From positions 10,545,375 to 10,609,374 of the forward strand of contig CAIIXF020000005.1 of the NCBI GenBank assembly GCA_903813345.2: a stretch of DNA of 64,000 bases. Reading direction: 5' to 3'. Source of the DNA: Owenia fusiformis (Eukaryota > Annelida > Polychaeta > Sabellida > Oweniidae). The notes beneath the pieces are model-generated. The model worked only from the letters and a program-made list of their open reading frames with translations. It did not search any database and had not been told where the DNA came from. Below, one piece after another: positions 41,801 to 44,800 of this stretch; positions within the stretch are counted from its first letter, which is position 1, and every line of letters begins with the position of its first letter. A program made the translations under genes and the position numbers.

Positions 41801-44800
41801 AGTGAAATATTTTGTTACCATTATGAATTTTTTTTCTGAAAGTGCAGAACTTGAATGAACTGATGTGATATATTAGCCTGATAGTGATGCAGATGTTCAC
41901 AATTCAGTGCTGATTTCGGGGAGTTGAAAATCCCGACTGAAAGTGAAGCCATCACTGATCTCCGTACATGCGCTATCACGATCATTCAATTCTACAATGA
42001 GATCACTGCTCAGAAAACTTGCAACAAATGCATCTGTGTTTTCGTATTGTGTCCCAACTGAGGAGGTTGTAGAACTCCCAGAATCCATAGATCCTGACTG
42101 GAAAAGTGTGTCATGTGATTGCTTGGGTCTCCTATGTCGATTGGGTTTGTTATAGCTGGTGTGAGTAGAAGATTTGATCTTAACACTGTCCATCTTTACA
42201 GTGTAGACACTTTGAGCTGTTTGCTCACCAGGGGGAGTTAGTGGTTGGTGTGGTGTGAAATCCTTCGCTAGATGGCAGCGACATTTGGTAACACAAAAAT
42301 GGAGGAAGAAAATCCCTTGAACAATGAACAAAACAGCGCCAATAGAGCACACAGTAGCAATAATGATATCAATCCAACTAAACTGGTGTTTTGAGAGGAA
42401 ACCAATAAAATCAGATTTAACAGTCCCATTACCAGTAACATTCCCATTGAGAGTGGTATTGCTATAATCAGCAACAGTATCATTGCCTGTGGAGATGACA
42501 CTAACAACATATGTGGTATCAATCTTGATATGCCTGTCATCATCAAAATCATCAACATTGGTTTGATTATCCTGCCCGGGGCTATCCAGATTGGATGTTT
42601 TATTATAACGATTCTCTGTAGAGTTGTCAGTTATTTGTTCATTGATTGAGCTGGTATAATTGTCCACAGATGTTGCATTGATAATACCTGTGACAGGTGT
42701 ATAATCACCGATGGTCTGCTCTGAGTAGAGTTTCTGTTCCTCAAGTACCCCTACACCTGCCTCCCTTATATCGTCAATCCACATATCTTCAGATATAATA
42801 TTCCCTAATGTGTTATCTTGGTCTGTACTGGGAACAGATTCAGGTGTGACCTGCTCAAATATGAAATGTATCATAGGGGGAGTATTGTAGCCTGTGTTAT
42901 TTCTTGGATGCACTGAAGCATAGACATCACCAACCACATTATGATTTGGTGTCTCATGTTTTTTGTCTGTATCAAATCCAGTTATTTCATTAGTTTCTGT
43001 GATCATATCTTCTCCCATGTCAACATTTTGACCTTGAACTTCATCAGGAATTGTACCCTCATTATTTACCCAAGCTGTACCATTCTCTGTTATCTTGTGG
43101 GGTAATGTAGTGAGCTCAATGGTAGTATCACCAGTCTCTGTTGTTACATCAGGGGACCCATCAATTTCTTCCATAGGAGCTTCATCATCATTTTCATTTA
43201 AGCTACCAACCTCTCCCTGAACATCCTTTATCTCATTATTTACATCATCAGAATCGTCCTTTTCACCACTGATCTTATCAAGAGCATGATTAACCCCAAC
43301 ATGTGGACCTTCAATCTTGCCATTCATACTGTTAATTCTATTGGGATAATTATGCTCAATAGAGTCAATAAATTGTCTCATTATATCACCCATATATTGC
43401 ATACCCTCATCTGGGTAGTCTGGAATTACAGGTGAGATATCACCGGAAGATGTGTGCTCCTCGTTTTCATGAGTATCAGCATCAATAAGGCCATCTTTGT
43501 TTTCATTCCTGCTAATAGACAGAGCTGGTTGAGCATCATTTGGGATAATATTGTTTCCATCAAGAATTTCATCTTCTGTCATGTTTGTATCAGTATCACT
43601 ATTCAAGTGAGCATTTGTGGTATTGTTAGTGATATTATTCTCAATTTCTGCTTCATTGGTATGGTCCTTATTTGGGTTGGTAATACCAACATTAAATCCA
43701 TCATCAAAATCATTGCTTGTAGTGTCAATAGCATTAGATACATCACCATTTTCTTGGATCTGGGCTTTGTTATACTCAGTATAAATAGTGTTTGAATTTG
43801 TAGAACTGCCCCCTATGCCAGTATGGGCCACTTTTACATCGCCATCATTCTCCATAGTTTTACTTTCAATTTCTTCATGAATGCTTCCATTGATATATTC
43901 ATCAGGTTTGTCTGATATTACATTCAAATTTTCTTCAATGTCAAATGATTCCCGAGTTACATCTTGAGTATTATCCATCCTTTCAAATTCCGATTCTTGG
44001 AGATCTCTATTGCTTTCAGCATGTACTTCCTCATGTATTGCTGAAGACAGGTTGTCTATATTATTGGCTATCTGTGGTGTTGTATCATAGCCTGATGATC
44101 CAAATGGAATTGTCCAAGATGTCCTTGTTAACAGATTCCAGAGAATAAACAACAGTTGCATTTTGAGTATCTGTTTCATTATTGTTGACTTTTAAGATTT
44201 AAGGAATAATATGAAAGTGTTTCATTCTTCAATTGAATTTGTCCTCTTGTGAATGTCAGTGTACCATTCTGCTAATAATATATAAGATATAATTTCATCA
44301 ACTAGTTTTAAAAATAGAACAATTAAAAGAATTGTGACATTTAAATTGCAATTAAAAATAGTTATTTTATAATTAACACTTCAACATCAATGAGTCATTT
44401 TGCAAATCAGTCACAACATGGAATTTAAGTGAGATGAGACTGCTACATCCTATGAAAGGTTAAATGTAAATGAGACAGGTGTTTACAGGTAAATGCCCAG
44501 ATGGGACATAGATATTTCTAAATTGCAAAATTACAAACTTATTTCAAAAAGCTGAATATGAAACTCCATCAGCATCAAATCATGGTGAAATGGTGTATGA
44601 AATCACAGATTTTTTTCAGAAGACATACAAGGACATTTAAAAACATTTGGCACCCTCATATAAAACAAGGCTAGAACAAGGCTAGGCATTAACATGCAAA
44701 ATGTCACCACCTGCCATTTGTTACAAGATGCCAAACATCAAACACCAAACTCCATCCACAAAAACTTGTATATCTTTGATCCCTTTGTTTTTTTAATTAA

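What the first reader, a model, noticed from the sequence alone, without database searches (positions are those of the whole stretch)
41897..44179. A PDZ-scaffold gene hosts, in its largest intron, an intronless gene for a membrane protein with a C-terminal PDZ ligand
The nested ORF has a signal peptide, an acidic glycosylated ectodomain, one transmembrane helix and a tail ending -STEL, which fits the class I PDZ ligand pattern (S/T-x-hydrophobic). The host gene encodes MAGI with at least five PDZ domains. Both are on the same strand. I recognise no family for the nested protein. If it is bound by MAGI, scaffold and client would be physically linked and perhaps co-transcribed. The binding is inference; the layout and the motif are seen directly.
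Basis: partly seen in the sequence, partly recalled or inferred. Interest (0 to 1): 0.75.

Follow-up and report, generated by a model that had tools for sequence, protein, structure and literature searches.

The report
Orphan membrane-protein gene inside MAGI intron
An animal gene for a single-pass surface protein of no recognised family lies inside a 16-kb intron of the junction-scaffold gene MAGI; the layout is real, but such nesting is common and nothing yet shows that the two proteins work together.

Summary
On the minus strand, 41897-44179 is a 760-codon open frame with coding-like codon usage, an N-terminal hydrophobic helix, one transmembrane helix, 17 N-glycosylation sequons all on the outer side, no cysteine in 599 outer residues, and a tail ending -STEL. 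It sits in one 16,432-nt MAGI intron (29319-45750): the exons on both sides, assigned to MAGI by homology, join in frame. No relative was found in Pfam, NCBIfam, the PDB or two collections not meant to hold animal genomes. No animal genomes were searchable, so orthology and conservation of the tail and location are untested. The proposed scaffold-client link is possible but weak. A class I C-terminus has a chance of about 3.5-3.9% at this composition. Human MAGI1 PDZ domains with the same GFGF loop prefer valine to leucine at the last position, and one gains affinity from basic residues upstream, of which this tail's last ten residues have none. A review states that most human nested genes are functionally unrelated to their hosts. 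Best reading: an independent single-coding-exon gene for a mucin-like type I membrane glycoprotein, possibly anchored by some PDZ scaffold, with the MAGI location probably incidental.

The parts
41897..44179 (-). Nested single-coding-exon gene: 760-aa type I membrane protein of no recognised family (stop codon included)
   Evidence: ORF; length null; codon usage
44105..44179 (-). Predicted signal peptide region (about residues 1-25)
   Evidence: hydropathy; helix 2-20; cleavage site not computed
42383..44104 (-). Acidic ectodomain, cysteine-free, with 17 N-x-S/T sequons, predicted disordered (residues about 26-599)
42296..42376 (-). Transmembrane helix (about residues 602-628)
   Evidence: hydropathy maximum near residue 605; helix 602-639 with the highest pLDDT of the model
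41900..42292 (-). Cytoplasmic tail of 131 residues, no sequons, predicted disordered
41900..41911 (-). C-terminal STEL, class I PDZ-ligand pattern
   Evidence: chance 3.5-3.9% by composition
29319..45750 (-). Host intron of MAGI (16,432 nt) between the PDZ2 side and the PDZ3 exon
   Evidence: in-frame joining of flanking exons
45751..45834 (-). MAGI exon just 5' of the host intron (...[10 protein letters not shown])
46487..46571 (-). MAGI small exon
46937..46983 (-). MAGI small exon
47232..47921 (-). MAGI exon: second half of PDZ1 and whole PDZ2
   Evidence: PDB hits MAGI-2 1ujv E 4.9e-22 and MAGI-1 2kpk E 8e-21
27907..29318 (-). MAGI exon 3' of the host intron: linker and first half of PDZ3
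   Evidence: PDB MAGI-2 1uep E 0.0013
26773..26962 (-). MAGI exon: second half of PDZ3
48645..48908 (-). Stop-to-stop frame holding the MAGI PDZ1 first-half exon (frame bounds, not exon bounds)
   Evidence: PDB MAGI-1 2kpk E 1.2e-18
26276..26497 (-). Frame with MAGI PDZ4 first half (GFGF); frame bounds
   Evidence: motif only; no Pfam hit
23033..23209 (-). Frame with MAGI PDZ4 second half; frame bounds
   Evidence: motif only
21488..21670 (-). Frame with MAGI PDZ5 first half; frame bounds
   Evidence: Pfam PDZ E 0.00059, below gathering score
21053..21316 (-). Frame with MAGI PDZ5 second half; frame bounds
   Evidence: motif only
50252..50485 (-). Frame with a MAGI WW domain (probably the second); frame bounds
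   Evidence: Pfam WW E 0.005, below gathering score
60161..60592 (-). Frame with a WW-like motif (probable first MAGI WW); frame bounds
   Evidence: motif only

Best explanation
An independent gene with a single coding exon, lying in sense orientation in a 16.4-kb MAGI intron of an animal genome, encodes a type I single-pass membrane protein. A signal peptide sends it to the secretory pathway (predicted). A stem of about 570 residues, acidic, cysteine-free, with many N-glycosylation sequons and probably disordered, is displayed outside, like a mucin-type or sialomucin-type coreceptor (inferred from composition). One helix crosses the membrane (predicted), and a 131-residue tail, probably disordered, ends in a class I PDZ-ligand pattern, -STEL. 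The tail most likely tethers the protein to some class I PDZ scaffold, for instance at junctions, microvilli or synapses (inferred). Its position inside MAGI is most likely the by-product of an insertion or origin of an intronless gene in a large intron (inferred), not a sign that MAGI is its dedicated partner.
For: ORF far longer than chance and in the coding-like frame. In-frame stop just upstream of the ATG, so the ATG is not read into from upstream in frame. Sequons confined to the side predicted to be outside, 17 of 17; 0 Cys in the ectodomain. Only the N-terminal and TM regions exceed block pLDDT 50 in the model. GC is 0.384 in the 2-kb bin 42001-44000, against 0.282 and 0.297 in the bins beside it. 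MAGI exons on both sides splice in frame around it. The tail fits class I, and all five MAGI PDZs have the His. Nested genes are frequent, about 10% of fly and 1% of human genes, most human ones functionally unrelated to the host (PMC4394429, section 5); about 41% of human nested genes are single-exon (PMC3192792, passage).
Against: No transcript, orthologue or peptide evidence: no eukaryote genome or RNA data were available (no relatives). The PDZ-ligand end alone has a 3.5-3.9% chance. Residues 1-100 score only 0.03 and residues 601-700 only 0.02 in the codon test. Sequons exceed a shuffle of the ectodomain only modestly (17 against a mean of 10.8, p 0.03). No promoter or poly(A) site stands out: 8 AATAAA/ATTAAA hexamers in 3 kb downstream against about 10 in base shuffles. 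A C-terminus changed by splicing cannot be excluded.
Confidence: 0.62

Rival explanations
1. Scaffold and client are linked: the nested protein's -STEL tail binds a MAGI PDZ domain, and sense nesting gives shared chromatin or transcription, so that the two are co-expressed.
For: Class I end; His at the aligned position in 5 of 5 MAGI PDZs in the window; MAGIs bind membrane adhesion proteins such as JAM4, nephrin and Sidekick (PMC8428372, passages); one review argues that same-strand nesting should favour joint expression (PMC4394429, section 5).
Against: GFGF loops and the Val preference of human MAGI1 PDZs, and no basic residue in the last ten (PMC3206016, passages); wide cross-reactivity of PDZ domains (PMC3026046, passages); [quoted passage not shown]
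Confidence: 0.1
2. The -STEL end is a coincidence and the tail is not a PDZ ligand; the protein is still a membrane glycoprotein.
For: A 3.5-3.9% chance per protein under the narrow pattern, 4.6-6.3% under a wider one; no conservation test possible.
Against: The pattern lies at the C-terminus of a long cytosolic tail of a membrane protein, a usual place for such ligands (general knowledge).
Confidence: 0.35
3. The ORF is not an independent gene but holds alternative exons or an alternative 3' end of MAGI, or is one exon of a larger gene.
For: Same strand. A loose scan for further MAGI exons in the intron listed four candidates, all inside the ORF and in its frame; two of them (42093-41968 and 42486-42433) have lengths that would keep the MAGI frame.
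Against: Those two score low (7.6 and 7.0, cut-off 6) with poor donor contexts, and the best-scoring candidate (43419-43070, 33.4) would shift the frame; being inside a long coding frame, such candidates are expected to score. A stop lies just upstream of the ATG; the ORF by itself has the full order signal peptide, ectodomain, TM, tail; MAGI joins in frame without it.
Confidence: 0.07
4. The nested gene acts as a switch on MAGI: its transcription or its poly(A) site in the sense strand truncates MAGI after PDZ2 (transcriptional interference).
For: Sense nesting with AATAAA hexamers downstream; nested genes can cause exonisation and cryptic polyadenylation of hosts (PMC3192792, passages); MAGI3 has a premature intronic polyadenylation form in breast cancer (PMC8428372, passages).
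Against: Hexamer number is not above chance; no RNA data.
Confidence: 0.08

Closest known systems
LRRTM1-3 nested in alpha-catenin genes (PMC3933685, abstract and passages)
   Same: A gene with a single or nearly single coding exon for a single-pass membrane protein lies in a large intron of an alpha-catenin gene (a cell-junction protein)
   Different: LRRTMs lie on the opposite strand, carry LRR domains and are conserved in most jawed vertebrates; here same strand, no recognised domain, conservation unknown
OMG, EVI2A and EVI2B in an NF1 intron (PMC4394429, section 5)
   Same: Genes hosted in one intron of a large gene; from recall, EVI2A/B are single-pass membrane proteins with the coding part in one exon
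   Different: Opposite strand; no sequence relation was tested; host is not a PDZ scaffold
Membrane clients of MAGI such as JAM4, nephrin and Sidekick (PMC8428372, passages)
   Same: Membrane proteins bound by MAGI scaffolds
   Different: Immunoglobulin-family adhesion proteins; binding is reported there, whereas here it is only possible; nesting in MAGI is not mentioned in the passages seen
Mucin-like or sialomucin type I proteins (recalled)
   Same: Long disordered glycosylated stem, one TM, cytosolic tail
   Different: No family match found; Thr plus Ser at 19% is modest for a true mucin

Membership tests
MAGI (host gene) | PDZ domains with closest solved relatives in MAGI-1/-2/-3 | tested here: met
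   PDZ1, PDZ2 and PDZ3 first half; PDZ4 and PDZ5 not searched in the PDB
MAGI (host gene) | two WW domains ahead of PDZ1-5 | tested here: inconclusive
   one weak Pfam WW hit, E 0.005; the other by motif only
MAGI (host gene) | guanylate-kinase-like domain and PDZ0 | tested here: inconclusive
   simple patterns only; the one P-loop-like match, 2597-2695, lies downstream of MAGI and is taken as chance; this part may lie beyond 64000
Class I PDZ ligand | [S/T]-x-hydrophobic at the C-terminus | tested here: met
   STEL
Class I PDZ ligand | conserved in orthologues | not testable with these tools
   no animal genomes held; no relatives
MAGI PDZ client | C-terminal residue preferred by human MAGI1-2/6 and -3/6 (Val) | tested here: not met
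   Leu here; preference from PMC3206016 (passages). Leu is weaker, not excluded, for MAGI1-2/6
MAGI PDZ client | measured binding to a MAGI PDZ | not testable with these tools
   needs a binding assay
Type I single-pass membrane protein | signal peptide, one TM, sequons only outside | tested here: met
   (prediction only)
Any Pfam or NCBIfam family | profile match up to E 10 | tested here: not met
   0 families; HMMER filters drop most matches above about 0.1
LRRTM (LRR membrane proteins) | LRR domain | tested here: not met
   no Pfam family at all
Nested gene | whole coding frame inside one intron of a host | tested here: met
Nested gene | own transcript | not testable with these tools
   no RNA data
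Retrogene | poly(A) tract and flanking target-site duplication | tested here: inconclusive
   looked for repeats of 25 nt or more, longer than usual target-site duplications; the one direct pair that lies on both sides of the ORF (44684 and 32002) belongs to a dispersed repeat; no intron-bearing parent could be sought

The most novel reading that the evidence does not exclude
A scaffold gene carries the gene of its own membrane client in sense orientation in an intron, and the pair has been kept together because co-transcription matches the supply of client and scaffold, or because the client gene's transcription tunes full-length against truncated MAGI.
Probability: 0.08. Interest if true: 0.7.

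Novelty: new member of a known kind. Interest (0 to 1): 0.3.

Why it matters
As it stands, it adds one unassigned surface protein and one nested gene to an animal genome. If the pair proved conserved and binding, it would be an unusual case of an animal scaffold-client pair encoded one inside the other, and a natural test of whether nesting can be selected for co-expression, against a survey that favours neutrality.

Tried and rejected
Family membership by profile: none up to E 10 in Pfam or NCBIfam. PDB: two carbonic anhydrase hits at E 0.73 and 1.3 over 27 and 40 residues, rejected as chance. Relatives in viral contigs: 10 pattern matches, 0 confirmed. Relatives in prokaryote genomes: 60 pattern matches, 0 confirmed. 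Both scans used six short peptides of one sequence and reach close relatives only, and neither collection is meant to hold animal genomes, so they say almost nothing on orthologues. Paralogues of the ORF in the window: nothing beyond weak matches (best E 0.035 for DNA, 3.1 for protein). A further MAGI exon inside the host intron: a loose scan (entry in one phase only, at least 36 nt, score above 6) gave four candidates, all inside the ORF; two would keep frame but score low. Shorter or weakly coding exons would be missed. First hand-set exon bounds were off by one or two bases and gave stops; corrected. tRNA and Rfam scans of the window gave nothing. Fold comparison was not run, because the model is of too low confidence. 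Paper searches were seen as listings. Papers opened: PMC3206016, PMC3933685, PMC3026046, PMC8428372 and PMC3192792 (passages), PMC4394429 (passages and section 5), PMC2553845 (no occurrence of MAGI). No paper on a protein-coding gene nested in MAGI appeared in the rows listed (20 of 29; 15 of 33; 10 of 191; 10 of 92), which is no proof of absence. The passages seen of PMC8428372 mention non-coding RNAs, and no protein-coding gene, in MAGI1 and MAGI2 introns.

Full report
What is there. The finding's coordinates hold a 760-codon minus-strand frame with ATG and TGA; four codons separate the ATG from the in-frame stop upstream. In 30 Markov copies of the window the longest stop-free run never exceeded 199 codons. 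Its codon usage resembles the MAGI exons in that frame only: +0.187 per codon, against -0.03 to -0.13 in the five other frames and at most -0.119 in 300 intronic pieces. The training set was 777 codons, and the intronic pieces (34-40 kb) overlap the background and hold a tandem array, so this is supportive, not decisive. Residues 1-100 and 601-700 score close to zero.

Topology. There are two hydrophobic segments, the N-terminus and one near residue 605. Of 760 residues 135 are D/E and 44 K/R. All 17 sequons lie in the 599 residues before the TM and none in the 131-residue tail. The ectodomain has no cysteine. A shuffle of the ectodomain gives 10.8 sequons on average, and 17 or more in about 3% of shuffles, so the count is mostly a product of Asn/Thr/Ser richness. 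AlphaFold2 without an alignment gave mean pLDDT 36.3, with only the first helix and the TM region above 50 by blocks. This is what a signal peptide, a disordered stem, a TM and a disordered tail would give, but single-sequence models are poor evidence of disorder.

Host gene. The flanking exons match human MAGI structures: PDZ1 first half to 2kpk (E 1.2e-18); PDZ1 second half and PDZ2 to 2kpk and 1ujv (E 8e-21 and 4.9e-22); PDZ3 first half to 1uep (E 0.0013). Six exons placed by hand at GT/AG sites, from the second half of PDZ1 to the second half of PDZ3, join into one open frame. Three of them are small exons at 46937-46983, 46487-46571 and 45751-45834. The host intron is therefore 29319-45750, 16,432 nt. 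The nested ATG is about 1.6 kb from the upstream exon, and the stop about 12.6 kb from the downstream exon. PDZ4 is seen by motif only, PDZ5 by motif and a Pfam hit below the gathering score. Other introns measured are 248-944 nt; the gap between the WW-bearing frames is about 10 kb.

Could there be more MAGI exons in the intron? A loose scan gave four candidates, all inside the ORF and in its frame. The best would shift the MAGI frame; two low-scoring ones would keep it. I take them as echoes of the long coding frame, but RNA data would be needed to say so.

Is it an unknown family? No match up to E 10 in Pfam or NCBIfam, and chance matches only in the PDB. No relatives in the viral or prokaryote collections, as expected for an animal gene. 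No animal genome or proteome could be searched, and no whole genome is held for the window. 'Orphan' therefore means not in curated families, not absent from other animals. The organism was not identified.

The PDZ idea. STEL fits class I. By the protein's own composition, a [ST]-x-[LVI] end has a 3.5% chance, 3.9% by the tail's composition, and 4.6-6.3% with a wider last position. All five MAGI PDZs have a His where human MAGI PDZs have theirs (PDZ1 and PDZ2 in the alignments; PDZ3-PDZ5 aligned by eye; that this is alphaB1 is recalled), so class I binding is open to them. Against MAGI in particular: PMC3206016 (passages) reports that MAGI1-2/6 prefers Val to Leu at the last position and MAGI1-3/6 takes only Val, and links this to phenylalanines in the GLGF loop. 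All five domains here read GFGF. The same paper reports that positive charges upstream of p-4 help MAGI1-2/6; this tail's last ten residues, [10 protein letters not shown], have none. Leu-ended ligands are weaker, not excluded.

Nesting. PMC4394429 (section 5) gives nested genes as about 10% of fly and 1% of human genes, two thirds on the opposite strand, mostly (in human) unrelated in function to the host. [quoted passage not shown] The nearest layout found is LRRTM in alpha-catenin genes (PMC3933685, abstract and passages), on the opposite strand. The layout here is thus of a known kind; same-strand nesting is the minority form.

How it most likely works. Shown by computation: frame, topology signals, position in a MAGI intron. 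Inferred: a cell-surface glycoprotein with a long charged stem, acting as a spacer or coreceptor, anchored from inside by a class I PDZ scaffold. That the anchor is MAGI I put at about 10%. An effect on MAGI processing (premature ends in the intron) is possible, since sense nesting puts the nested gene's signals in the MAGI pre-mRNA, but the hexamer count is not above chance.

Verdict. The functional link is an untested idea with modest evidence against it. Interest is moderate to low unless conservation or co-expression is shown.

Noticed in passing
44684-44764, 32002-32043 and 38196-38225 (host intron); 48451-48500; 25304-25350; 20359-20443: A short dispersed repeat, all six listed copies in one orientation. 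The core TGTCACCACCTGCCATTTGTTACA is followed further on in two copies by GGTGGTGACA and in a third by GGTAGTGACA, which suggests a small inverted-terminal-repeat (MITE-like) element. One copy lies about 500 nt upstream of the nested ATG.
   Followed up: partly
6407-6496 and 12663-13436, minus strand: Downstream of MAGI, a frame with [14 protein letters not shown] and a Pro-rich frame with [10 protein letters not shown] suggest an HHEX-like homeobox gene (name recalled; no Pfam hit for the second frame, the first was not scanned).
   Followed up: no
38292-39687: Large tandem array in the same host intron, units of about 136 nt with the motif TTGACCTTGAGAAGGTCA.
   Followed up: no
27907-29318 and 45751-45834: The MAGI exons on both sides of the host intron repeat a KTPT motif (ERSKTPT; TRTKTPT, RAKTPT twice, RSKTPT), a possible phosphorylation or binding repeat.
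   Followed up: no
31438-31840: Inverted repeats in the host intron (47-nt arms, 85% complementary, 19 nt apart; and 25-nt arms, 96%, 224 nt apart), possibly another mobile element.
   Followed up: no
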